Source of the DNA: Coprinellus micaceus
Lineage: Eukaryota; Basidiomycota; Agaricomycetes; Agaricales; Psathyrellaceae
DNA: 64,000 nt
Reading direction: 5' to 3'
Assembly (NCBI GenBank): GCA_951394405.1
Contig: OX596335.1
Span: 2,852,001 to 2,916,000, forward strand
Part shown: positions 19,221-39,034 of the stretch, piece by piece
Numbering within the stretch: position 1 is the first letter of the stretch
Layout of the letters: every line of letters begins with the position of its first letter
Made by a program: the position numbers and the translations under genes
The notes under the pieces: generated by a model
The model's input: the letters and a program-made list of their open reading frames with translations, nothing else
Databases searched by the model: none
What the model was told of the DNA's origin: nothing

Positions 19221-20788
19221 ATGTCTGCGTCCCCGTCACCCAACCGTCACAATGGCCTCCCTGACTCTCCCAACAATGATCGTGGGCACGCCCTCCCCTC
19301 TGGGAGTGGACCCAAACAAGCACCCCCTTCGCCACCAGCCCCTCACTTGGACAACGGCTCAGACTCGGGCTCGTCCAGCTTCGACGATGTTTACGAGGAT
19401 AGGTCAGACACCGAGCACGCCGAGCCACGACCCCTCCCCTCGGGCATTCCGTATGGCCTCAAGAGCCTATTCATTTACGTTGAGTACGCCGTGGGCCTTT
19501 TTCGAGAGAAGGCAGGGAGGGTTCCCCTAAGAGCTGGGGCTGGGGTTCTGGAGGGGGGTAGGATACCCATAGACCTACGGGCAGAGGTCGAAATGCTCAC
19601 TGACGCTGTCCTTCGCGCCTGGAAGAATCCTGGTACGTACTGTACTACCTTTTCTCTATTTAGCATGTCTAACCATCTCACGATGGCAGTCCGTCTCGAT
19701 TTCAGCATCGTCGAGGTTTCCAATCTCCTTGACTCCGGCGGATCGCTACCCAAAGACGAGCTCCTCCTGCAGAGGTTCACCCCTCCCCACCTGCGCAACC
19801 CCGATGGTTCTCTGCCCCTCATCGACGTTCCTACCGTTTACGTGGATAAGGACGGTCGGGTTGTGGCGTGGTACATTCCCAACGCCTTCGCTACTCGTCG
19901 TTCGGTAAGTCCGGCTCTCGTTCGCACCTCGTTGTATCTGACGACCACTTGTAGGATCAAATAACGAATGTGGTACGAAAGTTTGGCGAAGGGGTTTTAA
20001 GTATTGGAGGGGACAACTGGAGGGAGTCTGAGCAGAGCTACGCTAACCCGAAGAAGTGCCTCATGCCCCCTGGGACTGGGAACTTCAGCGTTAGTTGGTA
20101 CAACCGGGGTTTCAATGTGCGTGTTCTTAGGTTTACTAACAGTGTCTGCCTTGTGTTTACTTATGATTCTGTGTCTTCCTTTGGACAGCACCTCAATTCT
20201 CTCCCTGGGCCCTCCGCAACTCTCAAGCTCGACGCAGGGCGAGAAATCCTGCACCGCCTCCGCACCATTAACGCCCTTATCGGAATTCTCCTCTTTCTAG
20301 TCCATCCTCAAGCATTCGATCAGGCGATGAACGTCTTCCTCGAGCTTCTCCAACATCCCGAGAAGACATCGGACCCCGAGACCACTATGGCCATCTTTGA
20401 TGATTGGGCGACCCCTTTCAGTGGCTTCGCCTTGATCTCCAATCGGGAGACTAAGCTTCACAGAGATACGAGAGGCGGTCGATATTCTTTGGACATTCTT
20501 TCGGCCTTCGGATCTTACACAGGTGGCCGGCTTCAGGTTTCTCTACTCGGTGGGCGGTATGTGTACAGCCCTGGGACCGCATTTGTTCTCCCCGGCTATC
20601 TTTTTGAACATGGTGCAGGCCAGACTGCAGGAGAACGGCTTTGCCTCGCCAGCTTTTTTAGGCCAAACGTCGGGCGTGGGGCGTTGGGGAAAGCGTACAA
20701 GGATCTCCTTCCTCCTACCTTAGGTTTCCTCCAGTCTACATATTCATCTAGGCTCCCCGAGGTCGATGATAAAGATATCTGGAATTAG
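19221..20788 (+). CDS. TET/JBP-family 2-oxoglutarate/Fe(II) dioxygenase
   Basis: Four exons (19221-19632, 19690-19904, 19955-20116, 20189-20788) give about 462 residues. The 72-nt third intron is a multiple of three and free of stops, but has GTGCGT, CTAAC and CAG signals. Residues 1-75 are low-complexity. The C-terminal half is the double-stranded beta-helix core: iron ligands H354 and D356 in LHRDTRGG, H404 in FEHGAG and the 2OG-binding R413 in GERLCLASFF, with SPGTAFVLPG between. This matches the basidiomycete TET/JBP class that oxidises 5-methylcytosine (or thymine in JBP) in DNA. All ligands are present, so activity is predicted. It sits next to a KDZ transposase, as in other basidiomycetes. 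Substrate preference cannot be read from the sequence. Confidence 0.88.
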
Positions 20789-21501
20789 CTACTTATTACA
20801 TTCTCTCAACTTTTTGATCCACTGGTCTGTCTTCTCTACCCCTTTGCTGTAATGGGCCAAAGCTTCCTCAATAGTAATGACTTCCCTATCGATCTCCTGC
20901 AGCGCTGTTCCAAGAGAATGGCGGAGCCTCATCTCGGAGGAGTGAGTTTGGGGAGGAGTGGCGAGCCCGAGGAGGTCGTCCCAGGCGCGGAAAAAGTCGT
21001 TGAACAAGGAATTGGGTGTCGTCAGAGGGCGCCCAGGTGCCCACCAAGGATGGATGGGGAAGTGGTAAGGCAGCTTCGCTAGGGGCAAGTCTTCGAGCAT
21101 CTCCCCGTCGCATAAGGCCCTCCAAAGGCCCGCGTCGCTCCCCACTCGGCCGAGGCACATAATGACCCACTTCAGTCCCTCGAACTCATGGCCAATACCA
21201 ACACAAACTTGGTGGCCCTGAAGGACCACCGAAGCCTCCTTAAAAACCGCGTTAGGTAGGGGGAAACAAGAGAGGAATAACTTTACCGCACCACTTCCGC
21301 CATGAACATGGCGAGAATACGCTGATCTCTTGCTTGTTGACGGTGGGGTCCTGCGTTGCTTTCGAGGAAGCACCGGCGCCGCCAATAAACGTAGCAACTA
21401 AGGGCGCGCCATTCCCATTTCAGGAGGTGTTGCATCGCCCTATTACGATGGGGAAGGGGACAAGGTTTGTAGAGAGAAGAAGGGTTGCAGAAATTTCGCA
21501 T
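20789..21501 (-). CDS. unknown KDZ-linked protein
   Basis: The stop complement (20789-20791) directly abuts the TET/JBP stop, so the two genes are tail to tail with no spacer. The best model has exon 1 at 21292-21501 and exon 2 at 20789-21238, joined by a 53-nt GTGCGG...TTTAAG intron with a CTAAC branch site, giving 219 residues. The protein is Trp/Pro-rich in the middle (LPYHFPIHPWWAPGRP) and ends in a helical charged segment. I recognise no family. The donor site is not ideal and the start could lie further upstream. Overlapping transcript ends with the TET/JBP gene make antisense regulation possible. Confidence 0.5.
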
Positions 21502-21644
21502 TGGGGCTCAGGTGTGATGGTGTAAGCGAGAGTACACGTGAGAAAGGTAGAATACCCGAGTAGAAGCGCTCGCCAAGTCCCCTAGATCGTGAAAATCAGC
21601 TTGGAGAGGAGATGGAGGGACATCGGGGTTGCTTACGGTACCTC

Positions 21645-22456
21645 TCACCGATCCTCATCTTCGACGACGTCCAGGTTCTGCATTAGACGTTCAACGAAGG
21701 CGATACTTGCGTCGAGTGATCGAATGTGCTTTAACGTCTCGATCGACTCCATGCTGGCTTCTTGAACTAGCTGTTCGGACGTCCTGAACGCTGAGTGAAG
21801 CTCCAAACGGGAGAGGGGCAGGAGATCGAGGTAATCTTGTGTCTGGGTTGTCTCTCGGCACTTCAAATACGCCCTTTGTTTCTTCCAGCTTTCGTACAGC
21901 AGTTCTGGAATGACAGGCTCTATCTTCGCGCCGTTAGGAAAGCCTGACCACCAGTCGGCTTCGTACTCCTGGAGCAGGCCCTCGTCGCAATCCGGATCGC
22001 CTGCGACAATGTCCGCGATTGCTGTTACATCTCCCAACTGCCCAAAGGAATGCAAATTGACAAGCTTTCGGATGATAATTGGAGGGTGTACGTTCCCAGC
22101 ATGGTAGAGATGACCCAGGCCGACCAGAAACGTAGCACAATTCTGTAAGCACATAGAACCAATATTAATATATTGTGCCATTCCAGGAGTAAGCAAAAGA
22201 TGCGTCGCACCAACTCGACCTCAACAAGGGACAGAAATGAATTCATCTCGGACGAAGGAAGCTCTCCCATTACTTCTTTGCACCTCGTCGTCCAAGCGCG
22301 ACAACGACTAGCGAGATAAGAGACGAGCAGTCGATAGGAGTCGACATCCAGTTGTCGAAGACTTCGCATAACGGCTGGGTTTACAGGCATTCGAGAAATC
22401 GTACACGGGATGCAGAGACAAGGCGAAGAAAGTGACCGGCTATAGATTGTGGACAT
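21645..22456 (-). CDS. unknown helical protein downstream of the KDZ transposase
   Basis: Two exons (22211-22456 and 21645-22142) join across a 68-nt GTGCGA...TTACAG intron into 247 residues. It follows the KDZ transposase on the same strand, with its ATG only 39 nt after that gene's stop. The protein is mostly helical, with a pair of cysteines and Leu-rich segments, a central acidic stretch and a charged C-terminal coil ending DVVEDEDR. No domain recognised. The spacing leaves almost no room for its own promoter, so the start may be within the transposase 3' region. Confidence 0.5.
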
Positions 22457-22494
22457 AGCTAACCCTAATGATGGAGTCTGATGATGGAGGGCAA

Positions 22495-25400
22495 TTACAA
22501 TACGCCCACAACCACTCCGCTCTTTTTCTCAAACTCTCCGGCGGCGTAGCGTCCAAGGCGGTACCACATGTTCGCCTGGCGGTACGCATATGAAGAGTGC
22601 CCCGCAGTAGCCCCATTTTCAGCCCAGTCCGTCGCTCGAATGTAACGATGCTTGCAGAAGCGGACGAACCACTCCATCTCTGATTTCAGCATCACCACCT
22701 CCTCGGTCCACCGATCAACCCGAGAGCGAGCGCGAATCCAGTTTACACGGTATACTGGTTGCATAGTGAGTATGTGTTTCAAGTTCTCATATACAATACG
22801 CTGCAACTCACAATCTTGGACATACTTATCCGCAGCATTCGGATCGGAGGAAGAGACTTGGATCTTCCAAATCCAGGTAAGCTGGCTATCTCTCTGCCCC
22901 TGTGCGTTTGGGTTCCATATAGATATGACAGCCCTCGTGTCTTGGTTCGTAAGTTCCTCCAATTCTGGATATTTGTCGAGGACTTTGAGGCGAATAAGCG
23001 CCCGTCGCGCGAGATCGTATCGGTTACAGTGAAGCCGCATTGCGGATTCGATCGTGTTTATTTGGCCGTAGATCGTCTTCCGACCTCTTTTCCCGCTAGC
23101 GAGCTTCTTGTTTCCCCTGTAAAGGTAGGACTTGTGAGCAACGAGACTCCGAATACTTTCCAGTGCTTCATGGGCCTGGGCGACCCGGAGCCTTTCCTCC
23201 TTCCCAATCTCTGCCTTCCACCTCCGAGGAAGGTCAACGGCAGTAGACGGGAGAGGGATAGGGATATCTTCAACCTCCACTTCGTCGGTGTCGTCATCGC
23301 TGGCCGTCCCGATATCTTCTTCACAGTTGCATTCATTGACGGGATCCTCGCAGATACAGAGGTTTTTGTCCTTTGTAGTATCTGCGTCGAGTGATTCCAG
23401 ATCAAGCCCGTCAAAGAGTTCAGCGCCCTTCTCGTAGAACGCTTCGATCTTCTTCAAGAGGTTCGCTCGTTTACGTTCAGCTTCAATGGCGGCAGCTCCT
23501 GGCTTCGCGTCAGACGCAATTCCCCTCACAAATGCACGCAAGTCAATTCTGTTTCGGCCGAGCGTTAGCGTTAAGACGAACAAAATCACTGAGGACGCAC
23601 TGGTCCGATTGTATTTGGATTCCCTTCGCGATCCACTCTGCCACCCCCCGACGAGTTTTGGTCTTCCGCTCCTGTTTCATCAGATCGACTTGTGCTTCTA
23701 ATTGTCCCTCAGCTGAATTGAAGGCTTTAAGGTCACAAACGAGGTCTGCTAAAAAGAGTTAACTCGCCTTCATAACTCTCGGTTTTATAGACGTCCATTG
23801 CGGTGGTATCTCCTGCCACTCGCCTCGCATGTGCGTCCGCCATCACTGCCTTCCACTCGGTTCGTTGCTCCGGCGAGCAGTTCTTGTCGACCAGGGCAAA
23901 GTCTTTCTCTGCGACCGAGATACCCTTCGTGGCATCGGCGTACTGCTTGATAAGGTAACCCACTAGACCATACAAGGTTAATATCTCAAGCCCCTCGCCC
24001 CAGACGAGAACTCACCCATATTCAATAACTTCTTCCAATTACTATCGGCCATGCAGGCATCAAGGACGGCCACTCGATGCGCCGCGGTCATATTGCGGGT
24101 GCTACTGGCGACGCCGATAAGAGTGGACCATAACGATTCCAAAATTTCACCTGCGACCACACCAGCCCCCGGCGCGAACGTGGGGGCAAAGCGAGCGAGG
24201 CACTCTTCCTTGTGACCATGCACGTGGAAGAGGCCAATGAGAAATACGATCACCGCCTCGTCTGGTATCGATTCCCTCAAAATTGGGTCTTGGAAGCGCC
24301 GGCGGAACTTCACGCAGTACTGACAATTCACATCGTATGCGAACATGAGGCCTAAAAGCAAGGCAGCACCCGTCGTTTCGTATGCTTGCGCAAGGGAGTA
24401 GTCCCCGTTCTTCTGTCTATGAGGGGGTCAGTCATTAATTCGGAAGACGTGGCTCAGCACGCTTGCCTGTCGGACGAATAAGTCAGCTTTTATCTCGGCC
24501 GAGGCTCGTGGCGAAAGCTACCTTTCGCCCTTCTGCATGTCCACCACCGACCCTGGTGCGAAACAGCCGTGCCTCGTGCAGGCGCAAGCGAGGATCCCCG
24601 TTGAATCAAAGCCCTTCTTGCCCTTATTCTTGTCTGTGATGGCTCGTAGTTGGTTGCAGGTCAGTGTCTGTTCGTTTTGTCATGGTCACCTCCTGGTACG
24701 ATGACGATGATTATGGCTCACCTCCTTCCCCTCTTTTCCATCTCCCAGAAAGGTGTTGAAGCCCGTCCGCTCCGCAAAGTAGCCCGCACCGTTCATCAAC
24801 CAAACTGCATTGTCTGGATTGTTCACAATGAGGTGATCAAGTACAAAATTACCATCAGCAGTGAGGAACCTCCAGAAGCGCCACCTAAGGGACCATTAGT
24901 TTCTTCAATGAATGTCGGAGCCCGAGCACCCACTGGTCGTCAAGCTCCCTCCAGTTATCCGGTAGATTCACGCCTGGTTGGGGACACACGGCGCAGTACA
25001 GCGCGAGCTCACCCTTTCCTGGGGGAGATATCTCCAGGCAGACAATACCCATGCCGTTCCTCTTCAACGTCGTGAGGTAGTTGTATTGTTGCCAGACCCG
25101 AGTGATCTCCCGCTGTCTCTCCTGTGAAATGCATTACTTGAGCGGCTATCCACGGTCTGAAATGGACAGACGTTACCTTAGACTGGGATGGGAAAACATA
25201 ATTACTTAGCCGGCGCAGGAGTGCACAGTAGTGCTCGACGGATATTTGAGAGTCGACAATGCTGAGGTGGAGGTGTTTCAGTAATTCGAACGTGAAGACG
25301 GTCTGAGGTTCGGCCGAGGTCGCGGGATAAAGATTGGACTTGACGAGTTGGATGTCGAAGGCTGGGGCGTTTGAACAGAAACATTGGAAGACGGGGAGCT

Positions 25401-26301
25401 CATGAAATCCATTAGGGTGAACAACAGTCATCATGCAAGCACCACCCAGCTGACCAGTGGTCGGTCTTGCTCCGTACGTGGGGTCGTCAGGGAAGGTCCG
25501 CTCCTCCTCCAGGTCTTGAGCAGTCATTCGGATAACCATATCCTCGATGTCGTCTCGACTCTTCTTGTAATATGGGCAGGGGGATATCCCGTGGCCAAGG
25601 CAGATCACCGTCCCTACCTGCCACAACCAAGAAGGCTGCCACCGGTTCTCGACCCATGTCTCGATCCGATGGAAGGGGTTTTTTCGGTGCTCGAGGCGGC
25701 AGCAGTCCCGACAAAGTCGCGGCGTCGAAACACAGTCAAGGCATCGCGTCTCAACATTTCCCAACCCGCATTCCTCGCAGAACAGAGCGCACTGCCCCCC
25801 TCTCTCCAGTATAGCGGCTAGATATGATTGGGAATGGTCGCGGGCCCAAGCATCCATGTATTCGTGTGTCGTCTAAGTGCGAGATATAAATTTGCGAGAA
25901 TGAAAGTGATGGAATTTCCTTACCCGCCCTTGGCTGGTTTTGCCTGTGTGCGACTGGGTGATGCCTTCCATGAATATTGGAGGGGCTTCGTTGTCATCGT
26001 CCGATGGGTTGCTATCGTTTACCTGGGTTGAACTATCGTCGCACGCGAAGTGAGGTGTGTTCCAAGTGACGGGTTGGGAGGAGTCGGTGGGTTCGACGGG
26101 TATATCTTCGCCATCTTCAAGGACAGCGTCGCTTCGCTTCCTTTTCTTCGACCCTTCTTCCGTTGTTTGCTTTGCTGAGACTTCCACGGGCTTTATCTTG
26201 AGCCTCGAACCCCTGCCTGAGGTCGACTCCACAAACTCAACTTCCACATTATCCTCGGCATCTTGAGAGGCATTTGGGCGGCGAAGCTGACGCAGCGCCA
26301 T
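22495..26301 (-). CDS. KDZ transposase, 9 exons, intact
   Basis: Exons, 5' to 3' on the minus strand: 26301-25924, 25872-25177, 25121-24934, 24884-24722, 24667-24522, 24416-24016, 23962-23768, 23712-23601 and 23548-22495. They join in frame to about 1110 residues. The CxC2-type cysteine cluster lies at about 154-194 (C154, C158, C161, C170, C173, C180, C183). It is followed by the VVHPNGFHELPVFQC block, the RHGCFAPGSVVDMQKGER block and the RNase H-like core with D552 (FAYDVNCQYC), HVHGH and GE614ILE617SLW. The end carries the conserved LKSEMEWFVRFCKHR segment. One intron (23713-23767) is GC-AG. The ATG at 26301 is preferred to an upstream non-ATG frame extension. No stop or frameshift is seen, so it is potentially active. 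Confidence 0.93.
23713..23767 (-). other. GC-AG intron in the KDZ transposase
   Basis: The donor reads GAAG|GCGAGT and the acceptor TTCAATTCAG. Only this 55-nt intron keeps the transposase frame; a GT donor with the right phase is not available nearby. Confidence 0.7.
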
Positions 26302-26424
26302 TGCCAGAAACGCTGACACAAACCCGTAAGCAGAAACGGGGAGATGAGAAATGCGTGATAAATTTATGAAGAATCAAGATTCTGCCATCACACCGGATAA
26401 TTGCATCCATCGTTCTAACCCACC
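26302..26424. promoter_or_regulatory. bidirectional promoter between KDZ transposase and HMG-like gene
   Basis: Only 123 bp separate the two divergent start codons. The spacer is AT-richer than its surroundings and has a TATA-like TGATAAATTTATG near its middle. Both genes are probably co-expressed from this short region. Confidence 0.55.
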
Positions 26425-29400
26425 ATGTCCCTACCTCCTTCGTCTCTTCAAGCTGAAGTGCCTGCGACCACCCAAGGGGGTTCGTCCTCGCCAGTAAATG
26501 GGGCGCCTGCAGCTGCGACGCAGCCCTCCGCATCTCTGAAATCGTCCAAACTCAGCCCGCCAGGGGAAACAATTACCGACGCCGTAATCACGGCAGAAGA
26601 AGAGCTCCTCGTCCAAGACCATTCCCTGGACGCCCGGTTCACTGCCAATCAACTCTCTGAAATGACCGCAATGATCCCAGAGTACACGTTCTCTCTGCGA
26701 AAGCAGAAGAGCCACATCACCCGCACCCTCAGCGACAAGTTCATCAAGGAGATCCTCGATAGTGGGACGGAGTTGGATAAGGTAAAGCGGGCTAGAGTAC
26801 TGGAGGTGCGTCAGCAGCTGTCCTGTGATGACCTCTAGAGACTTATTCCCCCCTCCCCCTCTCTCCTCCCAGAACGTCCAGTATTGGTTCACCCAGCGGT
26901 GTCGCGTGAGGGAGGCTACCCCAACCTTCTTCCACCCTTACAGCAGCCGCCAAGTGTTCTACAAGGAAAATGCCTTGGCTGTCAAGAAGATGCAGAGGAA
27001 GCTGTACTGCAAAGCTACAAATAGGCCCCTCCCAGAGGTGGCGGATTCGGACGACGAACGAGAGGACTTGGACGCGGTGGAGGACGAAGAGAGCACTTCG
27101 TCCGAGGGAGGCATCAAGGCCAATGGAAAGCCCGTCAAGCCGTTTGATTTCTTCCAAATAGCGATTTCGAAGGAGTTCAACAAATTGAGTAGCAAGGAAA
27201 AGGCGGAGTACGAGAAAAAGGCCTTGGAGTGGAGGGTTCAGGGTCCAACGGAGGACGTGAAGCAAGAGTGCGTACAAGGAAGGAGCCAAGTTCGATTTGA
27301 TGTCGGCCGGGAAAAGCTGACTTCATCTTTCCCAGGCGTGCTGAGAAGGATACTGGGCGCCTTCTCTTCTCAGTCGCTGAACATATGTTCAAGCAGATGG
27401 GGGTCAAGTTGTATTTCTTCGTCTCATATAAAAACACTAAAAATCAAACTGTTCGTGGTGAGTAAGAAGTGCTGGTAATTCATACCATCACGGTCTGAAC
27501 GATTCCGTTACTAGCTCAACACGACTTCGGGAAGAGGTTATACGGATCGAACCAGAATTTCCGAGAGATTGCACGCCCAGCGATCATGAGGTCCGGGGTG
27601 TGGAACCGCTGGATCCAGTTCACTCGAGACGAGAACACCAGCCCTAGCACTGATGTAGGTTCTGAGACGGCCGGGGATCTCCTACATCTCCCCTTCAATG
27701 AGTACAACGAGATTGTCGTCCCCGACCCCGACGAGAAAACCTTTCCCAAAACCGACCAACCGTTCAAGTACCTGCAGAAGGTGATGCGCTGCGTTATCTC
27801 TCATGCCAATGGTAAGGCCCTGTTCGCCCCGGGGTTTCAACGCGCTGACCTTCGGATAGCCCTCGCGATGGGCAAGCCCATAGAGAACTACAAGCCAACG
27901 GAAGAAAACTGCTGTCGTTGGGGAACTATAGAACAAGATCCATTCAAATTTATCAAGAAGGAGTGCTTTCCTAACGGGGAGACTCAACTATCTGACCCCT
28001 CAGGTCTCAGGAAGGCTCGTACGTCTAAATTTGTCAAACATTGGTGGGACCGCCAGCAGGAGGGCTTGCCAGCACTCGAGTTCCACAGTTACATGGACTC
28101 TGCAGGGAACATGCAGCCTGCCTTCCCGCGAAGGAAGGCCGGAGAGGAGGCAGCAGATCCTCCCCGGCGTAGTGGGCGAAGCGTGAACAAGGGTGCCGTG
28201 AACGATGGGGATCATACTTCGGAGGAGGAGGACGAGTTACGCACCAAGACGAAGTCGCCTAAAAAGCGGAAGGCTGTTTCAAGAAAGGGTATGAAGTCGG
28301 GGGGCAAGGGTAAATATTTGGGAAAGCGCAAGTCGCCCGCCTCTGCAGAATCGGATTGCCCTGCCCCTTCTTCGGATGAATCTTCGGATGAATCTTCGGA
28401 TGAATCCTCTTCGGACGACGACACAAGATCTGTCAGTCAGAAGGAAGCTCGCAAGCGTCGGAGGGTCGACGACACAGACTCAAGCTCGTCTGACGAAGAG
28501 GGTACGCCTCCCCGATCCAAGAAGACCACCTCTAAGAAAACGGCTTCAGGTGCCAAACGGCATCAAGAAACCCCGTCAGAGCCTGGCTCGCCCTCACCGA
28601 TATCTCCTCCACAAACACCTCGACGCGGCTTGGCTGCGTCGCTGCCACAGACACCTGATCGAAGGCGCCAAGTCCACACTCCACTCGACGTCTCGCCTGC
28701 ACGGTCGAACGACCTGAATGCTTTCTTTACTCCTCACGCTGAACACCAGGTACCACTATCCCCCGACGACCACTCCCACTCCCAGGCCCTGTCGCCCATG
28801 CTCCCGTATCAACCGTTCGCATTGACGGCTCCTCGACCTCATCCATCTCTAGCTCCCCAACCCCAGACCCACGCGGCCCCAGTGTCGGCCCCGCCTCAAC
28901 AGCAGGCCCCAGCACAGCCCATCCCTGCGCCTGCCGTGGATCTGAATGGCCTCATCCTTTCTCACCTCGCGTCTATGCTTCATCCACAGTCTGCCCCAAG
29001 CATACAACTGCCCGTTCAAGTTGGGCAACAACAGGCGCTAGCCCAGCTCTTAGCTTTACAGCTCGCCCAGACCTCTCCCCAAGCTATCCAAACCCCTTCA
29101 CGTGCACTCGCAGACACCTTACAGCAGGTCCACATAGACACCTCCCCCAGTAAGCCATCCACTTCGTCAGATTCGCGATCTCTTGCGTTTCCTGGGGAGA
29201 CGCCCATGGATGTGGATGGGGGGACAGAGGAGTGGGCACCAAAGACCCCAGGATCGAGAAGCAGGGCCAAGGCAAACGAGAATCTGGAGGTCGACCAAGA
29301 GGGGAGCAAAGATGTGCGGAGAAGGGAGCGACTGTCAAAGGAGGCAGGGAAGTCGAAGGTTAATGAAGACGGGGAGGAGGACATGGAAGTCGATCAGGAG

Positions 29401-29991
29401 GGGAGGAAAGGCGTGCAGAGAAGAGGGCGATTGTCAAAGGAAAAGGCGAAGGCGAAGGTGAAGGTGAACGACGAGGAGGAGGAGGACATGGACGTCGAGC
29501 AGGAGGGGAGAGATATGCGGAGAAGCAGGCGATCATCGAAAGGGGAGGGGAGGTCGAAAGAGAAAGGGAGGTCGAAGGTGGTGGAAGACGGGGATGGGTT
29601 ACCCAAGAAAAAGCCAAAATTCGAGGCAGGATCTTCGAGGAAGGGTAAGGGTAGAGCGAGGGACCCGAACTGTGGATCCGAGGAGGAGGTGTCCGCACCA
29701 GACAAGGGACGTGGCGGGTCGGGAAAGGGAGCTGCCGGGGGTCGCAGCACAGAGTCAAGGTCCAAGGGAAAGGCCACCAAGACGAAGTCCACCAAACCCA
29801 GTGACTCTGGTGGCCGACAAGAGGAGGGTGGGGCGAAGAACGACAGGCGGAGAGACCCCAAGACCTCCGAAGCGCCAGCACCTCCCAGTCCGAGCAAGGC
29901 GGATCAGCGCATGTTGGATTACACCAAAACGTTGGTGGGTGGATCGATTAGCACAAAGCGAACGCACAAGAAAAAGGTTCGGGACTCGTAG
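26425..29991 (+). CDS. divergent HMG-like chromatin protein of the KDZ element
   Basis: Four exons (26425-26805, 26873-27267, 27336-27457, 27515-29991) give about 1124 residues. After a low-complexity start, residues about 75-140 form a helical segment ending in VQYWFTQRC, which resembles the third helix of homeodomain-like folds. Residues about 150-250 resemble a split HMG box (FYKENALAVKKM, then FDFFQIAISKEFNKLSSKEKAEYEKKA). The second half is disordered: SSDE repeats, a Pro/Gln-rich block (about 600-720) and three acidic-then-basic repeats (DMEVDQEG type) with a strongly basic end. KDZ transposons are known to carry a divergent HMG protein; this is probably it. Role inferred: DNA or chromatin binding, perhaps target choice. 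Confidence 0.7.
28369..28404 (+). repeat. three perfect 12-nt units coding SSDE
   Basis: TCTTCGGATGAA occurs three times in a row in the HMG-like gene and encodes acidic Ser/Asp/Glu repeats. It is a small coding minisatellite likely to differ in copy number between element copies. Confidence 0.9.
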
Positions 29992-30760
29992 CCGTCTGTT
30001 CAGTCGCTAGTTTGTGAGAAATGTACATGTGCGAATTTGGTACCCAGAGCATCGGCGCTGGCATCAGCTCGGAGGCCGAATCTAAGGCGTCTTGAACGTG
30101 GAAAAGCTGTGCTTTTTGCGAGATGCATCGGCCGAGCTCAAGTGTGTCTACACCCTCGTTCTAGTGATTCAACGATCCTCCTACCCTTCTGGTACACTAT
30201 AGCCGACCGAACCTCATCTGAGATCCCAGGACACCCCAAAGCGACGCAATGTCTTCTTAGCCAAAGAAAGAATATGATTCAAACTCCAGGTATTGTCGAG
30301 TAGGTGAGCGTTGTTCTGACTTTCTGGTTGGTTCAATGTTGAAGCGCGCTTCAACATTTCTTATTCCAGCTGCGAACTAACGACCGTCTATTCACGAGAG
30401 ACAGCATTTCAGCTTATGCCATTCATGGGCGTGGATTCGAATGCGCCATCTATCGAGACCTCGGACGACGCCTAGATAATACCGCCGTTTGCTCCCGTCT
30501 CTCCACGTACCCTCCAACGGAGCCGGAACTCAGGGCTGTGTCGTAGGCGAGGAACTATCCAGCTGCTACTCTGATTGTCAACAGTCGGATGGCGGCTGAA
30601 GTCGGACGAGAAGTCGGATAGAGACAGGAAAGTCCTCCCCTTAGCGCCCGCCGTCTGCCCTTGCCTCGTCCGACTGAACCGTGTCACGGGACAACTAGCC
30701 AATTGGCCTATCCTTGGCGTTGAGCTGGTACTGGATGCAACCTAAACCATCACGACCGTC
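29992..30760. other. intergenic stretch with a perfect palindrome
   Basis: No gene seen. It contains the 24-bp palindrome at 30335-30358 and, toward its right end, the promoter of the small gene starting at 30761. Two GTCGGA/CGTCCGA motifs lie at about 30600-30670. Confidence 0.45.
30335..30358. repeat. 24-bp perfect palindrome
   Basis: The half-site AATGTTGAAGCG is followed immediately by its exact reverse complement CGCTTCAACATT, with no spacer. It lies between two cargo genes of the KDZ element. It may be a site for a dimeric DNA-binding protein or a hairpin in a transcript end. Confidence 0.85.
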
Positions 30761-31495
30761 ATGGAGAAAACACCATTCACCGATGCCGAGGTCACTGCGG
30801 TCTCTCTACACATGGATGACGCGCTCAAAGTGAGTACGAACAATAGTACGAGGTGATTTTTGTTGCGAACATCACAATCCAGACAGGGCTCTTCTCCTCA
30901 GTCAAGTGTGCTTTGATTGGTGCTCAGTGCAGTGAAACCCAACGGGTTTCAGTGCTGCTACATCCAGCCGTGGCTGAGAAGTCAAGAAATATCGATCTGG
31001 TTACAAGTCCCTACTTGCAGGTGTACACGGAGCCCGAGGTTGGGGTGCATATGTGCGAGGATTCTTGGTGCATCCGTCGCTACCCTGGGGGAAAACGGGA
31101 TCAGCCCTTCTTTTGGTCCATTTTTACACCAGAGCTGACAGTAAGTCGTTGTCCCCATCCATTTCCGCTATACTGAAACCAACCCCAGGCTCGAGTCAAG
31201 AAAGCGTTGCGGTTTCCCAGAAACGAGCTCTACGATCGTTTCAAAGGGCCAGAAGGGACCTTCCAGATGACAGGCAACATCCTGATAGCCAAGTCCGATT
31301 GCGAAGGTGTCCTGTGCGACGTTCTAGAGCGGGATTTACTCTTTGTGGAGATGCTGGTGGTTAGGTGGGCATATTTCCGTACTCACTCATGTCCAATCTC
31401 ATTCATGTATTCACAGCTTTTTTGAGGACGGCGCTGATAGAGGAAGTGTCCCTCATTCGGATCACCCCTTGATTCGGCCCATGGAGGGGAGGTAG
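30761..31495 (+). CDS. unknown 193-aa KDZ-linked protein
   Basis: Four exons (30761-30829, 30883-31140, 31189-31364, 31417-31495) join in frame across introns with good signals (GTGAGT, GTAAGT and GTGGGC donors). The protein has an N-terminal acidic helix, then a beta-rich region with scattered cysteines and an aromatic centre (QPFFWSIFTPEL). It ends with a helix and a Pro-rich tail. No signal peptide, membrane segment or family is recognised. The clean four-exon splicing supports a real gene. It lies only 51 bp before the next gene on the same strand. Confidence 0.6.
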
Positions 31496-31546
31496 AAGAG
31501 GCGCTCGACGTGGGAATCTGATTCTTAGACCACCTTTTCTCCAACC

Positions 31547-33004
31547 ATGATGGACTCCTACACAACTTTTCTTTTGCAATGCCATCTCCTTCTCATCGTC
31601 GCTTTCGAGCTCTCGTTCAAAGACCTCCTCCGCTTCCGCCACTTACCAGGGTTCGCGCGTATGGCGTTCAACACGGAAATCACCCGTCGCATCTTCCGCT
31701 CTTTGAATCCTTTCATCCCCACCACATCGGCCCCTACCTTTTTCGCTCGCCTTGAGGAATGCGGTGGAATAATTACCGGGTCCATCGTACGCGAAATCCT
31801 CCTCCTCAACATCAAGACGCTTGAAACATTTACGACCCTAACTATCATCATCCGCCACCGGGCCCCAAGCCCAATGCAGAAATTTTTGAAGCAGCTCGGC
31901 TACGCCGCGAGGGACCTTACCCAGAAGGACCCCGAGGCGAAGCTGGTAGATTTGCGAGACGGGAAGAACGTCGTCGAGAGCGTCGAGCTATACGAACGCG
32001 TGGACAACTCGGGAACCGTGGGTGTATCTGATTATGCAGAGAGGTTTCCTATCTCACCTGAGCTGCAGAAGTTCTCCATTGTCCTCTTGGTTTGCAAGCG
32101 GGAGCCTGTCAGCCTACTCGTCTCATGCGACAATACAGCCGACATGGTCGCGATTTCCCGGAACACCATCGTCGCCTATTACCCTCGCCTCACATTTGCG
32201 GACGAGGGGCTCTTCGTCAACGATTGTGTTGACGTTGGCAGCTATCAGATGGAGATTACGACAGGCGACGGATCGACTCTGTACTCGGATAATAGCCACT
32301 GGAAGAAACCATGTGGCATATACTGCCCATCAATATGGCGGCATTCCTACGACGACGACGGCGTCCTCACGGTCAACTGGGAGTGCCCCAGGGAGGTGAC
32401 CAGTGGTGCGGGGGTTCCTGAGACCCAGGGCACAGGGGTTGGATCAGGATCGCCGGTCAGTGGAGGTGTGGTGTCTGTTGAGGCTTCGTCCGAGGGTCAG
32501 GGGGCGGAACGTTATGGTGATTCGCCCGAGGGAAAGCATCTGGAACCCGATGTAGGCTCGTCCGATGGCGAGGAGGATCAGTCGGGTCAGGGAGCGGAGG
32601 ATTGTGATTCTTCGCCCGAGGGAAAGCGTCTGGAACCCGACGTACGCTCGTCCGATGGCGAGGAGGATCGGTCTGGGGAAAGGCTCGGTCTGGGGGAAGG
32701 CGCAGAACCCTTTGGAGGTTCATCCGATGCTGGGAACTGGGGAGTCGTGTCGGCAGGAGGATCTGCCGGGAGCTGGGGAGCGGACGTGGGTTGGCAAGTC
32801 GCTGACGCCTGGAGGCCAGAAAAGGACGTCTGGCGACAAGCTTGGCGTTCGTCTGCGCCATATTTCGATGGTAACATCCCCTCCTTGAACAATTTCACTT
32901 ACGGTGAGATTTTCAGGTGGAGAGTTACGAACCGTTGCAAAAACGGCGAGTGTCCGAATTCCCAATTGCACGATGTCCTCCTTGAATACGGAGTCCTCCT
33001 TTAA
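31547..33004 (+). CDS. protein resembling a degenerate nucleotidyltransferase-fold family
   Basis: A single exon of 485 residues. Residues about 60-230 resemble a family frequent in Agaricomycetes, with an ITGSxVRE segment (like the GS motif of NTase folds), a region of about 25 residues where catalytic acidics would be expected, a long helix and a late strand before YYPRLTF. The usual aspartate pair is not evident, so it may be inactive. The second half holds two copies of a roughly 34-residue acidic repeat (SPEGKxLEPDV and SSDGEED) and a Trp/Gly-rich end. The similarity is from memory and weak. The function in the KDZ unit is unknown. Confidence 0.55.
   Translation: MMDSYTTFLLQCHLLLIVAFELSFKDLLRFRHLPGFARMAFNTEITRRIFRSLNPFIPTTSAPTFFARLEECGGIITGSIVREILLLNIKTLETFTTLTIIIRHRAPSPMQKFLKQLGYAARDLTQKDPEAKLVDLRDGKNVVESVELYERVDNSGTVGVSDYAERFPISPELQKFSIVLLVCKREPVSLLVSCDNTADMVAISRNTIVAYYPRLTFADEGLFVNDCVDVGSYQMEITTGDGSTLYSDNSHWKKPCGIYCPSIWRHSYDDDGVLTVNWECPREVTSGAGVPETQGTGVGSGSPVSGGVVSVEASSEGQGAERYGDSPEGKHLEPDVGSSDGEEDQSGQGAEDCDSSPEGKRLEPDVRSSDGEEDRSGERLGLGEGAEPFGGSSDAGNWGVVSAGGSAGSWGADVGWQVADAWRPEKDVWRQAWRSSAPYFDGNIPSLNNFTYGEIFRWRVTNRCKNGECPNSQLHDVLLEYGVLL
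32490..32700 (+). repeat. two tandem ~100-nt coding repeats
   Basis: The segment coding GQGAE, SPEGKHLEPDV and SSDGEEDQS is repeated once with few changes directly downstream. It is a recent in-frame duplication within the NTase-like gene. Confidence 0.8.
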
Positions 33005-33195
33005 TCTGTCAATGTATTCGATGTGTACAATCCTTGTAATTTGCATGTGCGCTGCCGTCTTTTTTTTCTCGTCCGAGTCCTTCGTTCTTCCCCTCTCGTC
33101 TGTATTCGACCGGTTGGTGTGAATGTAAATTGTCACTTGTGTCCGAAACCTGGTATTATTATCCGAATCAATGAAGCAATGTTTATTCTAGTTCT
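33005..33195. other. convergent 3' intergenic region
   Basis: A T-rich run at about 33060-33067 lies between two genes that end toward each other. No gene is present. Transcript ends of both neighbours probably fall here. Confidence 0.4.
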
Positions 33196-36100
33196 CTAGA
33201 GATTATCTGGGTTGGAATCATCTGAGGCAGTTGAGGGTTGGGGTGGGGTAGGAGGCAGGGAGGTCAAAGGGGAAGAACTGGCCGTGGACCCCCGATTAAC
33301 GAAAGGCGAATAATGTGAGAACCTTGTCGATGGACCCACACCCGAAATCAAGGACCCTCGGCTCGAAATAGCGTCAATGTTGACAACTGTGGACTGATTG
33401 GGATCTAACAGCATCTCTTCTTCATCCATCTCCCCATCCTCCTGTTCAAGTTGTCTGCCCTTACCTTTGTTCGGCCCACCCTCTGATGCACCCCGAGAAC
33501 GAGTGTCCACGGGTCGGTTCGGACGACTCCATCCGCTGACGGATTGAGGTTCAGCTGAGTTTTGAGCAGTCGTCGGCGCAAGATCGGGATTGAAGGCCAG
33601 ATCTTCGTCTCGGAGGGGGGCTTGAAGCGATGCAAGTAACCCACCTGGGACGGGGGAAACGCCTGGTAGAATTGGTGACATACGTCCGGGAGAGTGCTCG
33701 CCATCACCTGTCGCGTCGCCTGTCGTGGGACCAAACATGGCAGAATTTCCACCGAACCCGTCAAGGGACACCCCGCTCTGGGCATTCACGGGCCCTGCCC
33801 AAAAGACTTCTCGATCTACTTGCTCCTCAGGTCCCGTGGGCAACTGGAGGTTTCCACCCATTCCGTAACCCCCGAGGTTCTGTCCCGGGTGCTGACCCAT
33901 TCCGACGACGAAGCCTCCTTGATGACGACTTTGCCCGGACAGCGTAGCGCCCATACCTTGGTATGCCCCATGCTGTGCCATTCCCGGTATTCCTGGTCCA
34001 TCGCGAGGACTATTCCAAGCCCACTGCGACGACACGAACCTCCTAAAGCTATCGAGCTGAGCATCAATGTCTTGGCGGATGGAGAAGAGCTGTGTCTGCG
34101 TCTCCTGGCGCGCGTGTACCCCTTCCGCCTTGATCCCAAACATAATTGTGCGCAGGGCATTGTTGAGGCTCATCGCGTTGATATCCACTGCCGATTTCAC
34201 ATGGCGGTGATCAGTCTCGATGTGGTCTAGGCGACGACCAATGTCGCTGCACTGGGCTTGAATGTTGGCGAACATAGTTCCGATTTGCCCACCGGTAGCG
34301 TTGTCGCGGTTAGTCTTCAGGCCTTCCATGGCGTCAACGATTACTGAAACTGCCCTCTCAATCCGTTCGAGTCGCTCTGCCAAGCCTTGTCCTTGTGTTT
34401 GGCCAACCTCCACGAGTGCTCTGATCTCCCCGATGGATTCTCGGACATCCCCCGCTTCCTTGACGTCTCCCTCCGCCCTTTCCAACCTGTCCTCAAACGC
34501 CTTCTTGTCCTTGGAGAGCTCGTCCGTTTTCTTCATCACCGCTTGGGCCGAGGCCTCGGCCTTGCTCACTCTCGCCTCAACTGAGTCCACCCTCCCATCA
34601 ATGTCCTGATCCCGAAGACGCGCCTCCTCTTGCATCGTCCGAACGCTCTCGTCCGAATCTCTCTCGGCCTTGTTAACCTTGTCTTCGAGCGCTCGTACAC
34701 GTGCGGTATCGCCCCTGTTGCTTTCGACCTTCTGTATGCGCTGGAGGAGTTCCGCTTTCGTAGTCTCAGCTTCCTGCGCCAGCTGGGCGATATGGTCGAT
34801 CGACTTGTTGTGCTTCTCGCCGAAGTCGACGATATCTCCATCGTGTGCGTCTGTTACGGCGTCCAATTTCCTCAGGGCCTCGCGATCGCTCTGGTACCAT
34901 CTCAGCTCGCGTATAACAGTGGAAGTTCGAGCCTCGACGTCTGCCAAACGGTGTTCGAACATATGCTGGCGTTCCCTTACGCATGCCAAGGTCTGTCGAG
35001 TAGTATCCGGGGCGAGCTCAACTTCGTTGCTGGGGGCGACTATCTTCGACCGGGGTTTCAGAACTTGAGGTCCAAGGGGTCCGTCGCCAACTAGCACCTG
35101 CCCCATTTTCCGTCCATCCAAAGCGTAAATCGTCAGTGGAACGGGGATCCCAGGGGTGTGAATGCCTTACATTTTTGTTAGTATTGACGGGTGTCTCAAT
35201 GTTGACTGAGGTCCCGCGCTCACCCAGGTCTTCTGCTGTGGCCAACGCTTTGTTCTTGGACAGTCCCTTTCTTTCTCTGGAGTCGGCGCCTCTGGGCTTG
35301 GGGGCCACGTTGGGTTGAACGCGTTTCTCTGGGGGCGCTTTGTCTGACGCGTTCTCGCCTATAGGAGTGTCGACGTGGGAGGTGGTCTTGGTCGTGGGTT
35401 TTCCAACGTCGCGAGGAGGTCCCGCCATGCTGGTGGGATTCGCCGTCTTCGCACTGCTTCTGACACCCTTGGCGTACGAGCACTTGAGCTTCGATGGCTT
35501 GCACCTTTGGCAGGCATTACCAAACCTGATGTAGACGCAGTCCCTCTTGTTTTCTGCAAGACACCTATCGCAAGCGGGGTCATATCGGCCTAGCTTATCC
35601 GGGTCCTGCTTGGTGCGCTTCGAGGGGCCCGAGTCGGGATGATTGTCCTCTTCGCCCGTTGTGTCGACGGTCGCCGGCGATTTGCGTTTTTTGGTCTTCT
35701 TCGACGCCTTGGGAACAGGCTTGGGCTTCTCCTCGGTGGTGTCTACATTCTGGACCTTGCGAGGTTTGGGCGGATCTCCCATATACTCGCTACCATCGCT
35801 CCCACTCTCCTCCACCCATTCGTCATCCCTCGCCATTCCCCGTTTGAGCGGGTCTCCTCCGTTCCCTTCGCTAGCGGGTCGCGGGATTCTCGGCACCTCT
35901 CCCTGTTTCGCTTTCGCTCTGTGGGTCTCAGCGCCTCGCTCTTTTTGCTCTCCTTGAGGTTCGTCTATTTCCTGCGAGCGTTTGCTGGTGGGGAGCGTGT
36001 CCCCCATGGCTTCACGAAACGTAATGAGATCCAGCGGTTCCTTGCGCTTGTTAAGATACGGGATGCTTCCCCCATAGTTGAACCAGGCCTTGACGCGAGG

Positions 36101-36377
36101 GGTCCGCTCCTTGGCGAAGTCCGTGCTGAACATCTTCGCATGTTTACCGATGCGGATCTGGGGATTGGTGAGACGCGTTCCGGGAAGGGGGGATAACACG
36201 TACTGAAATGCTGCAGAGGATACCTCTCGCCTCCAGAAGGTTGTCCTCGTCCGTCCAGCTGGACGATTGATTAAGGAACTCGTCGAGGAAACGGAATAGC
36301 TGGCGAACGTCCTCGGACGACTCTGCGACCTTCTTGGTGAGTTTGGCACCTTTCAGTCGAAGCTCTGGGTCAATCAT
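33196..36377 (-). CDS. Zn2Cys6-like, long coiled-coil KDZ-linked protein
   Basis: The main exons are 35171 to about 36,210 and 33196-35097, joined by a 73-nt GTAAGG...GGGCAG intron (35098-35170). A first exon from the ATG at 36377 codes 50-odd helical residues in another frame. No normal intron reconnects it near 36,210-36,230, so there is either an unseen intron or a 1-nt indel. The first half is basic and disordered, with a cysteine cluster C-x2-C-x7-C-x8-C-x2-C-x6-C (CDRC...C...CQRC...C), close to the fungal Zn2Cys6 DNA-binding motif. Then come about 320 residues of heptad-rich coiled coil and a Gly/Pro/Ser-rich tail. Probably a dimeric DNA-binding or scaffold protein. Function inferred. 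Confidence 0.62.
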
Positions 36378-36541
36378 AGTGGACTTTGGCTCGGAGGGAG
36401 GAATACCGAGTCAACCAATGCGGCTCAGGATATAGTACCCGGCCGTGGCCCACAAAATCGATCGTAGCGAGAGCTCAATATTTGGCTTGGCGCCATTATG
36501 TTTCCAAAAATAGTAACTGGTGCACCTTGACCCCTCCCATC

Positions 36542-39034
36542 ATGGCGTCTAAAGGTCGCAAACCTGACCCGGAAGCAGGAAAGCGCATCCCAGGATCTGA
36601 ATGTAAGCGTCGCTTTTCCTCTGGAGTTCTGAGATGCATTACCTTTGACAAGATCCAGTCAGCCTGAAAACAGCAAGCCTCCAGAGATCAAGCGGGCCCC
36701 AACCCAGAGAAAAAATGCCATCAGCTCTAGAAGGTTGGATAGGGAAATCATATTCAGATGCACCTCGAAGGGTCGTCGAGGCAGTAAAGACTATGACCTC
36801 TCTTTCCGAGGACGCCCTACAAGACTTGCTGCCAGGTCTCAAGACGATTTCGCAAGTTGCCAAATTCGCCCTACCCCCCCAAATGCGCAAAGGCATTGTC
36901 TTCAAGGCCGAAAGTCGCTTCAGCCTTGCTCGGCCGAACATCTCACTCGCTCAGCTTTTGAGCCGAGACAGCTTGAAGATTCCTAACAATTCAGTGATTG
37001 AAGACTTTGATGATTGTGTCGGCCAGGCTGTTCTCGATCGCAGGCTCTCCGTCGAGCTATGGGGGTTTGAAGGGGATAGAGTGTACGCACCATTAACTGT
37101 GGTCGAGCTGTGGAAGTACCTTGCAAGGGCGGTCGCCGCGAAAGTCGCTTGGAAGCCAGCAATCAACTGGTTCAACTCCATTGTCGCGAATATCGACCTC
37201 GAGCTCAAGAACCGTGTTACGAACGTTCTGGAATGCTCGCCGTGGTATGGTTCCATCCGAGGAGTCCACGACTCCATGACCATCACCAAGGCCGCTGGGT
37301 TTCTTGGCAACATGGATCTCAACACGTCGCACATCAACGCCATGCTCTTGCAATTGCAAAAGTGTGTCGGAGATGATGTGCTGGTCGGGTCTGCGGCCTT
37401 CGGGGAGTCCGTCCGGAACCTCCCTTTGAATTACCCAGCAAGTGCCCAATTCGAAATTAAGCGCCTTGGTACGTTCACACCATTTCGTCCACGAATGGCA
37501 CAGTAACTTACTATGAACAGGAGGGCTCGTAAAGGACAACCCCACGAAGTATCAGATCGTCACCGTCGTCCACTTGCCCTACGATCATTGGGCGGCTTTA
37601 TCTATCGATGCACACCAACAAGACGTTGTGATTTCCTATGGCGATTCTCTCGGGTTGACTCCAGAGGACAATCTCATTGATTCTATTCGACGATGGCTGA
37701 ACTACTATTTCCCAGGGCGGCGTTCCACCGTCGAGAATTGGAAACACGGGGTCCAGTTGGATTCGACGTCCTGCGGCATCGTCTCCATTAACACTTTGAA
37801 GCACAACTTGTTTGGGGGGCCCATTTGGGTGCAGAGCCAGCGCGAACTATTCCGCCTCCGTGAGTTCTGCGACATATTCGAGGGGGCCTTCCCTAGCCTC
37901 CTCGGGCTTTCTGATACAGTCTCTCCACCAAAAAATTTGGAGGTCGTGGCCCCGGTAGCAGAAGCCTCTGCGAAAGCCGTAACTCCTTCTTTGTCGCCAT
38001 CGGAGCCCGGGTTCTTGAAACCTCATTCCCCGACTTCTCCGAAACAATCGGTACTGCGTGTTGTTCCGTCACCGACATCACCTGTCCAACCACTTCGACC
38101 GCCCCAAGCATCCTCGAACAGAATGTCGACGAAACGCCAAGCCATCGCACCAGGGGATGAGTGTTACCTTGAATCGAAGAGGGCACGGGTGTTAGGACCC
38201 CCAGAGGCATCGTCAGGCGGCGATGGGGGGAACAGAGAGGGAGAGGTGATTTCCGATAGTGAGGGGAGCGGCGTTGAGGAACTGGGCCCTCTGGATATTG
38301 GCGGTGCGTAACACTATCAATACTTGGTTCAAAAGTTGAGATTCCGAGTCCTCCCTCAGATCTGTACGCCGATGAGTCCATGCTGGATTTGCGTGATATG
38401 GAAGGTGTGTTAATGGCTCTTCGGGCATGATCGTATGACGGCCTAACGTTCGGCCGCAGAGAGTCCCACATTCGAATGGCTGACCGCATCCGGGGATGAG
38501 GTCGATTTCCTTCGCTCTGGATCGAAATCTCCAGAAACTACAATGCCCCGTTCTGTGGCGGAGGGGAAAAGGCCAGCCGTGTCTAGGGCTCTCGCCAGTC
38601 CTTTTCAGCCTTCAAGGGGGCCAATTTTGGAGAGGAACAACAGGTTCAACGCACCGGTAGCTCCCTTCTCGGAGGCCGATGGTACTAGGAGCGCCGGCGG
38701 TACTTCTCATCCGATGGGGTCAGGGCCGGTAGACGGGGCTGTTCCGTCTTCGATACATGGCTCTGACGCTGGGGCCTTATTGGGACTAATCCATTCCCTC
38801 GACTGCTTGGAGGTTTCACGGAGGTTGCTGCAGCAGCACCATGCTGACTTGCTTTGGATGAGGGGAAGGGTCCAGAACCACCATCGCGATGTCATTCGAG
38901 TTCGCTACCTTGCCGAAAGGGTCATGCACGCCGCGTCGAGAGGTTTAACGATTCAGGGAAAGGGGGACGAAGTCTTGCGATCCCAGACATGGGAGGTCGA
39001 AGGGGCGGGGGGTAGTGGCGCGGTTAGGGCGTAG
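36542..39034 (+). CDS. Ulp1/C48-type cysteine protease
   Basis: Five exons (36542-36602, 36659-37468, 37521-38303, 38360-38404, 38460-39034) give about 757 residues. A 3'-site shift of six bases at the first intron would add two residues. The catalytic domain covers about 90-420. It shows H312 in DHWAALSID, D331 in YGDSLG, Q368 in GVQLD and C374 in STSCGIVS, the H-D-Q-C arrangement of SUMO/NEDD8-deconjugating Ulp1 proteases. The C-terminal third is Ser/Pro-rich and disordered, with a final Leu/His/Arg-rich helix. In this context it is transposon cargo, and may remove SUMO from chromatin proteins or from element proteins. The intact triad predicts activity. Confidence 0.85.

What the first reader, a model, noticed from the sequence alone, without database searches (positions are those of the whole stretch)
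19221..39034. A roughly 20-kb KDZ transposon carrying an unusually rich chromatin-modifying cargo
The sequence shows nine genes around an intact KDZ transposase. They include a TET/JBP dioxygenase, a divergent HMG-like protein, a Ulp1-type protease, a Zn2Cys6-like coiled-coil protein and a NTase-like protein. KDZ with TET/JBP and HMG is established; the protease, zinc-cluster and NTase-like genes as part of one unit are inference. Together they could oxidise methylated DNA, strip SUMO and bind chromatin at insertion sites.
Basis: partly seen in the sequence, partly recalled or inferred. Interest (0 to 1): 0.88.

Follow-up and report, generated by a model that had tools for sequence, protein, structure and literature searches.

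The report
Mushroom transposon with six-gene anti-silencing kit
A complete 22-kb jumping gene in what is probably a mushroom-type fungus carries, besides its transposase, five more genes that have travelled together (among them a TET-type DNA-oxidising enzyme and a SUMO-protease-like enzyme), and its DNA is dotted with a repeated 8-letter word that could be its own address label, which looks like a fungal counterpart of a known plant trick for escaping silencing.

Summary
Confirmed and extended. Window 18942-40906 is a complete TET+ Kyakuja (KDZ) transposon, 21,965 bp: 5'-CA..TG-3' ends, no terminal inverted repeat, 7-bp target duplication TTTTCTT. It holds six genes, not nine, all with open models: TET/JBP, KDZ transposase, HMG-like, an unclassified "NTase-like" protein, a Zn2Cys6-like coiled-coil protein and a Ulp1-type protease with catalytic residues kept. 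Between the two, dS is similar in all genes (1.3-1.7) and dN/dS is 0.08-0.29, so the cargo moved as one constrained unit. A third copy, 99.95% identical to C8a over its left 8.1 kb, shows recent movement. New: TCGGACGA is the most over-represented 8-mer in both elements (22 and 15 sites; 1 in 41.9 kb of flank). TET+ Kyakuja is known; I found no description of the protease and zinc-cluster genes in it, within the papers I could search. Likeliest reading: a multi-part anti-silencing module resembling plant VANC/KIU Vandal elements. Function is inferred, not shown.

The parts
18935..18941 (.). left target-site duplication TTTTCTT
18942..40906 (+). complete TET+ Kyakuja element, 21,965 bp, 5'-CA..TG-3'
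   Evidence: ends set by alignment with C13, C8a and C8b (left) and C13, C8a (right)
40907..40913 (.). right target-site duplication TTTTCTT
19221..20788 (+). TET/JBP dioxygenase, model 486 aa, introns 19633-19689 and 19905-19954
   Evidence: PF12851 E 7.7e-16; CcTet 7vpn E 1.9e-29; model
20789..26301 (-). KDZ transposase, model 1467 aa, 13 introns
   Evidence: PF18758 E 5.1e-39 over 4-217 of 217 and PF18803 CxC2 E 2.4e-18, tested on residues 1-1095; model
26425..29991 (+). HMG-like protein, model 1116 aa
   Evidence: PF09011 E 0.0017, 19.4 bits, under the 22.4 cut-off, residues 1-501 tested; model
31547..33004 (+). NTase-like protein of unknown class, 485 aa, single exon
   Evidence: no Pfam; relative P0001 of Coprinellus aureogranulatus, 34% identity
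33196..36377 (-). Zn2Cys6-like coiled-coil protein, model 1020 aa, introns 36203-36158 and 35170-35098
   Evidence: model; PF00172 E 0.0012 under cut-off, 63-residue piece tested; no relative at E <= 0.001 among the 7,990 candidates scored
36715..39034 (+). Ulp1-type cysteine protease, model 718 aa, H274/D293/Q330/C336; introns 37469-37520, 38304-38359, 38405-38459
   Evidence: model; alignment; 1euv E 2.3e-8 with the profile
24470..24477 (+). TCGGACGA site in a transposase intron, intact in C8a at the aligned place
30461..30673 (.). three TCGGACGA sites between HMG and NTase-like genes (30461, 30602, 30666)
33069..33076 (-). TCGGACGA site between NTase-like and coiled-coil genes
39306..40136 (+). 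five TCGGACGA sites in the right non-coding end (39306, 39400, 40018, 40034, 40129), partly in duplicated blocks
39466..39882 (.). nested repeat, 88% identical to C6:1305595-1306012

Best explanation
The locus is one cut-and-paste transposon of the Kyakuja branch of KDZ that moves six genes as a unit (about 0.95 on the sequence evidence). Proposed mechanism (inferred, about 0.5): the transposase mobilises the element; the TET/JBP enzyme oxidises 5mC placed on it by host silencing; the Ulp1-type protease removes SUMO from silencing or chromatin proteins on it; and the Zn2Cys6-like and/or HMG-like protein brings these activities to the element by binding TCGGACGA words in its non-coding DNA. Shown here: ends, target duplications, co-inheritance and constraint of the six genes, recent mobility of the family, motif enrichment with turnover of its positions. 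Inferred: every biochemical step, and which protein (if any) reads the motif.
For: Ends and 7-bp duplications in the window and the C13 copy, TCGCGACC (8 bp) at C8a. C8a: 21,265 bp, the same six genes in order. dS window-C8a: TET 1.41, KDZ 1.73, NT 1.52, CC 1.32, ULP 1.36 with overlapping bootstrap ranges, HMG 1.39; dN/dS 0.08-0.29 against 1.03-1.92 in shifted forward frames (five genes). C8a and C13 differ by 4 of 8,131 bp at the left and 0 of 1,306 at the right, with different flanks and duplications: recent transposition. Diverged family C8c keeps TET+, KDZ-, HMG+ ... coiled-coil-, Ulp1 C-terminal part+ and has a separate PF02902 match. TCGGACGA: 22 sites against 1.83 expected in the window element, 15 against 1.53 in C8a, rank 1 by z in both; 1 in 41.9 kb of flanks; 3 rows in 66.9 kb of other loci; 14 of 22 window and 12 of 15 C8a sites lie in DNA not aligned between the copies. 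Precedent: plant KIU Vandals join a Ulp1 domain with motif-directed hypomethylation (PMC13317346, passages).
Against: No expression, methylation or biochemical data. HMG and Zn2Cys6 matches are under cut-off and the NTase-like protein is unclassified. Only 4 of 22 KDZ loci with a TET within 20 kb have a detected Ulp1-type gene within 20 kb (read off the lists), so the protease is not general; in C8c the right-end gene lacks the protease part. The motif was found after the fact. 12 of its 22 window sites are in coding DNA, some are in duplicated blocks, the left 8,131 plus right 1,306 bp that C13 shares with C8a hold 1 site against 0.52 expected, and C8a has none in its last 5.6 kb. No genome-wide motif count was possible. 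C8a has in-frame stops within the aligned stretches of four of five genes counted (KDZ 2; NT, CC and ULP 1 each; TET 0), from introns or decay.
Confidence: 0.6

Rival explanations
1. Same transposon, but the extra genes serve transposition itself (architectural HMG, zinc-cluster end-binding protein, protease acting on transposase or repair factors), and TCGGACGA is an iteron for the transposition complex or a promoter element rather than an anti-silencing target.
For: All six genes are co-inherited and constrained, which this also predicts; five window sites lie in the last 1.7 kb of the element; iterated binding words are usual in transposons (recalled).
Against: Sites are absent from the first 3.3 kb of the window element and from the last 5.6 kb of C8a, so they do not sit near both ends as a transposase iteron would; TET has no role in strand transfer that I know of.
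Confidence: 0.3
2. A TET-KDZ-HMG transposon next to fixed host genes, or two adjacent mobile elements.
For: C1:616304-619588 carries coiled-coil and Ulp1 sequence, and no listed TET match is nearby.
Against: One pair of ends and one 7-bp duplication enclose all six genes; C8a repeats the set on another contig with its own duplication; on C1 the similarity starts exactly at the right end of another repeat, so I read it as a remnant.
Confidence: 0.03
3. Part of the cargo is passenger DNA kept for a host benefit or by hitch-hiking.
For: The region between HMG and coiled-coil varies: an NTase-like gene here, F-box-like (by eye) and 793-aa ORFs in C8c.
Against: dN/dS 0.20 for the NTase-like, 0.24 for the Ulp1 and 0.29 for the coiled-coil gene between two diverged mobile copies argues for a role in the element's own life.
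Confidence: 0.1

Closest known systems
[quoted passage not shown] Kojima 2025, PMC12730594; abstract, introduction, sections 3.2 and 4.2 and found passages read)
   Same: KDZ transposase plus TET/JBP gene, 5'-CA..TG-3' ends, 7-bp target duplication, no TIR.
   Different: The paper's main text has 0 occurrences of HMG, Ulp1, protease, zinc or nucleotidyltransferase; its supplements were not available to me. Here the element is 22 kb with four further conserved genes and an enriched 8-mer.
KDZ elements with TET/JBP and divergent HMG (Iyer et al. 2014, recalled; not held)
   Same: TET-KDZ-HMG core.
   Different: As I recall its abstract, it mentions additional proteins including a divergent HMG; I could not check whether it lists the Ulp1 or zinc-cluster genes.
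Plant Vandal MULEs with VANC and the Ulp1-bearing KIU genes (PMC13317346, passages)
   Same: No-TIR DNA transposons with an anti-silencing factor acting through short motifs in non-coding regions of related elements, and a Ulp1 domain of unknown role.
   Different: Other transposase superfamily, kingdom and demethylation factor; homology to VANC not tested; motif function not shown here.
CcTet of Coprinopsis cinerea (7vpn, 8jkk)
   Same: TET domain, E about 2e-29, HxD..H and R aligned (their catalytic roles recalled).
   Different: Here a gene inside an intact element; activity untested.

Membership tests
Kyakuja (KDZ) | KDZ transposase domain with CxC cysteine cluster | tested here: met
   PF18758 E 5.1e-39 over 4-217 of 217; PF18803 E 2.4e-18
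Kyakuja (KDZ) | 7-bp target-site duplication | tested here: met
   with ends CAG..CTAGTG: TTTTCTT (window) and CAAAGTT (C13) are 7 bp, C8a shares 8 bp TCGCGACC; the window could be read as 8 bp if the right end were one base shorter
Kyakuja (KDZ) | 5'-CA..TG-3' termini without TIR | tested here: met
   CAG...CTAGTG in window, C13 and C8a; 12 of 30 terminal positions match the reverse complement; a subterminal inverted similarity beats 300 of 300 shuffles in the window (28 against a maximum of 24) and 295 of 300 in C8a
Kyakuja (KDZ) | transposase groups with Kyakuja in a tree | not tested
   no reference set of transposases at hand
Zisupton | 8-bp duplication and TIRs | tested here: not met
   7 bp in two of three copies, no TIR
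TET/JBP dioxygenase | domain with Fe(II) HxD..H and 2OG-binding Arg | tested here: met
   PF12851; alignment to CcTet keeps H, D, H, R
Peptidase C48 (Ulp1) | His-Asp-Gln-Cys catalytic set in a C48 domain | tested here: met
   H274, D293, Q330, C336 invariant in 4 of 4 rows; profile to 1euv E 2.3e-8; single protein under Pfam cut-off; fold not modelled
HMG box | Pfam HMG match over cut-off | tested here: inconclusive
   19.4 of 22.4 bits
Zn2Cys6 binuclear cluster | six-cysteine cluster over cut-off | tested here: inconclusive
   19.3 of 21 bits
Nucleotidyltransferase fold | GS motif and DxD acidic residues | tested here: inconclusive
   GS present, no DxD seen by eye (motif recalled); no Pfam; models pLDDT 36 and 35
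VANC/KIU anti-silencing system | homologous anti-silencing protein, motif-directed hypomethylation | not tested
   only the analogy and a candidate motif

The most novel reading that the evidence does not exclude
The element is a self-addressed anti-silencing machine: an element-encoded zinc-cluster or HMG protein reads TCGGACGA words scattered through the element and brings its own TET dioxygenase and SUMO protease there, in convergence with plant VANC/KIU. A diverged family in the same genome, which has TCGCCCGA often instead (14 sites, 10 distinct contexts; no expectation computed), would then carry a co-evolved address.
Probability: 0.28. Interest if true: 0.88.

Novelty: new variant of a known kind. 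Interest (0 to 1): 0.66.

Why it matters
TET genes in fungal transposons are thought to fight silencing, but how they would find their own element is open. A complete element with a co-evolving SUMO-protease-like gene, a candidate DNA-binding protein and an enriched 8-mer makes that testable in one locus, and suggests that a fungal transposon and plant Vandal transposons converged on joining DNA-demethylation control with a SUMO protease.

Tried and rejected
Cargo exchange in C13: C8a and C13 share both ends almost exactly but differ inside (11.8 kb against 34.1 kb), which first looked like a cargo swap. The 34-kb insert begins (after one base) CATCA and ends TGATG, the PlavakaB ends given in PMC12730594; a 10-kb piece of it has 62 match rows elsewhere in the genome, and C1 holds a 98-99% partial copy. 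I read it as a nested element with a deletion, not cargo; none of 10 of its ORFs had a convincing Pfam match, and no matching short duplication flanks it by eye.

Segmental duplication instead of transposition: rejected, flanks differ and duplications differ.

NTase fold: two structure predictions failed (pLDDT 36 and 35), so no fold search was run.

Relatives: the coiled-coil model had none at E <= 0.001 among 7,990 scored candidates; the NTase-like and Ulp1 proteins had one each. Recurrence of the gene set in other species could therefore not be tested.

Papers: searches for Zisupton+Ulp1, Kyakuja+HMG and TCGGACGA gave 0 papers. Kyakuja, Dileera or Zisupton gave 68 papers, 30 listed; of these I opened only PMC12730594. 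Plavaka+protease gave 4, listing seen only. Ulp1+transposon searches gave 186 (15 listed) and 8; I opened only PMC13317346. TET+SUMO protease+transposon+basidiomycete gave 1; the passages shown have SUMO protease once, in the reference list, and no Kyakuja or KDZ. Only open-licence papers are searched.

In one search the two HMG rows used wrong frames and are discarded; the HMG value is, which had no shifted-frame control. One search printed useless output from a faulty search and was replaced.
Full report
What was tested. The window lies at C2:2852001-2916000 of an unnamed 50.3-Mb genome in 17 contigs. The protein relatives found come from Agaricomycetes (Coprinellus; Hygrophoropsis; CcTet of Coprinopsis cinerea; their class recalled), so the host is probably a mushroom-type fungus; it was not identified.

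Boundaries. Searching the genome with 18.5-30.5 kb and 30.5-41.5 kb gave related copies: C8a (C8:1625571-1646835), C8b (C8, left end at 259885) and C13 (881683-925236). Aligning the ends shows similarity starting sharply at CAG(G/C)(T/A)CC(C/T)GTAGCAGCC and stopping at GTGATGTCGCCTAGTG. The window element is 18942-40906, 21,965 bp, flanked by TTTTCTT on both sides; C13 is flanked by CAAAGTT; C8a by TCGCGACC, 8 bp. At 0 mismatches the left-end pattern occurs 4 times in the genome and the right-end pattern 3 times; two more left matches, at 3 mismatches, are within the control's level. There is no terminal inverted repeat (12 of 30 positions match). These are the rules given for Kyakuja by Kojima 2025 (PMC12730594, section 3.2: 7-bp duplication, CA..TG, no TIR).

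Genes. Six models are open throughout: TET/JBP 486 aa, KDZ transposase 1467 aa, HMG-like 1116 aa, NTase-like 485 aa (single ORF), coiled-coil 1020 aa and Ulp1-type 718 aa. Splice sites are predicted from consensus and open frames only. The transposase matches PF18758 over 4-217 of 217 (E 5.1e-39) and CxC2. TET aligns with CcTet, keeping HxD, H and R. Ulp1 has H274, D293, Q330 and C336 invariant in 4 of 4 aligned proteins; the 4-row profile hits yeast Ulp1 at E 2.3e-8, while the window protein alone is under the Pfam cut-off. HMG and Zn2Cys6 matches are below their cut-offs. The NTase label found no support.

One unit. C8a holds homologues of all six genes in the same order and orientation. Between the window and C8a, dS is 1.41 (TET), 1.73 (KDZ), 1.52 (NT), 1.32 (CC) and 1.36 (ULP) and 1.39 (HMG); the five bootstrapped ranges overlap, so the six genes look as if they parted at one time. 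dN/dS is 0.164, 0.078, 0.198, 0.293 and 0.236 and 0.188 for HMG, against 1.03 to 1.92 in the two shifted forward frames of the five genes. Of the antisense frames, one per gene also gives low values (0.17-0.39), as expected when third positions still face third positions; the others give 1.07-2.70. Only alignable stretches count, which favours conserved parts, and dS near saturation is rough. An earlier run on ORF pieces gave dS 1.30-1.42 for the six genes and 1.70 for the Ulp1 C-terminal piece.

Mobility. C8a and C13 differ at 4 of 8,131 bp on the left and 0 of 1,306 bp on the right with different flanks and duplications: recent transposition. C13 also holds a 34,118-bp nested element with PlavakaB-like ends and lacks 11.8 kb of the C8a interior. 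C8b lacks the transposase core and the right part.

Other elements. Of 31 TET matches in the genome, 28 lie within 20 kb of one of 63 merged KDZ loci (from 107 rows); 22 of 63 KDZ loci have a TET within 20 kb. Ten Ulp1-like loci were pooled (four; six, two of them only at relaxed E-values and under the cut-off); 5 of 10 lie within 20 kb of a KDZ locus, chance about 0.05 each (binomial tail 6e-5), but copies are not independent, and 4 of the 10 are over 100 kb from any KDZ locus. A diverged family, C8c with a twin on C10 that is 99.7% identical over the parts compared, keeps TET+, KDZ-, HMG+ ... coiled-coil-, Ulp1 C-terminal part+, with F-box-like (by eye) and 793-aa ORFs in the middle; its ends were not determined. 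In C8c the right-end gene shows no protease part, while another PF02902 match sits between transposase exons.

Motif. TCGGACGA is the top 8-mer in the window element (22 sites, order-3 expectation from the element itself 1.83, rank 1 by z of 430 words seen four times or more) and in C8a (15, 1.53, rank 1 of 477). Elsewhere: C1 Kyakuja remnant 4 in 3.75 kb (expected 0.34); C8b 3 in 11.9 kb (0.23, rank 7 of 103); the parts C13 shares with C8a 1 in 9.4 kb (0.52); flanks 1 in 41.9 kb; nested PlavakaB part of C13 4 in 34.1 kb (1.76); C8c 5 in 38 kb (2.21); other fetched loci 3 rows in 66.9 kb (these loci overlap in part, and two of the three rows come from overlapping loci). In distinct contexts the word has 18 in the 22-kb window element and 12 in C8a, where the next best words have 12 and 8; the best word of the 41.9-kb flanks has 12. 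10 of 22 window sites are in the 6,071 non-coding bp, in 7 distinct contexts, while the next 8-mer has 4; hand-chosen C8a intergenic and intron stretches (3,380 bp, chosen after the sites were known) give 7 distinct contexts of 9, the next word, which overlaps it, 6. Of the window sites, 14 of 22 are in DNA not aligned to C8a, and of the C8a sites 12 of 15; 3 of the 8 aligned window sites are intact, against 8.8% of aligned 8-mers. At least one unaligned pair (positions 14578 and 14573) looks homologous by context. So the word is kept while many positions turn over. In coding DNA the choice of TCG-GAC before Asp/Glu is 4 of 10 against 1.4 expected, too few to judge. C8c instead has TCGCCCGA often (14 sites, 10 contexts), though GA-rich and CT-rich words score higher there.

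Reading. The transposon is a TET+ Kyakuja; that kind is known. I did not find the conserved Ulp1 and zinc-cluster genes, or the enriched 8-mer, described; Iyer et al. 2014 was not available, nor the supplements of Kojima 2025, so prior mention cannot be excluded. The closest working parallel is the plant Vandal group, where VANC acts through short motifs in non-coding regions and KIU versions carry a Ulp1 domain of unknown role (PMC13317346, passages). I therefore favour an anti-silencing module, with the address step as the boldest part.

Noticed in passing
L046-L049 (C13:889815-923931) and C1:598354-616304: A 34-kb element with CATCA..TGATG ends nested in a Kyakuja copy, with many related stretches in the genome; on C1 a partial 98-99% copy also ends exactly against Kyakuja coiled-coil/Ulp1 sequence.
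   Followed up: partly
L050-L053 (C8:1798001-1836000), L057: A diverged Kyakuja family whose C10 twin has its TET-KDZ-HMG core in the opposite orientation to its coiled-coil part.
   Followed up: partly
C8:1830693-1831258 and C10:1730584-1731149: A PF02902 (Ulp1-like) match lies between transposase exons of the C8c/C10 elements, on the opposite strand, and resembles a different Ulp type by eye.
   Followed up: partly
C2:1643813-1643971: A weak Ulp1-like match 2.1 kb from a KDZ locus without a TET match within 20 kb.
   Followed up: no
C8a element positions 20203-20330 (C8, near its right end): A piece of the TET N-terminal region is duplicated near the right end of C8a and C13 (89% to positions 539-666).
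   Followed up: no
window 39183-40189: Duplicated blocks around a 417-bp repeat that is 88% identical to C6:1305595-1306012; probably a small nested insertion.
   Followed up: partly
C8c, TCGCCCGA and TCGCACGA: The TCGNNCGA frame occurs often with other central dinucleotides (CC 14, CA 10) in the diverged family.
   Followed up: partly
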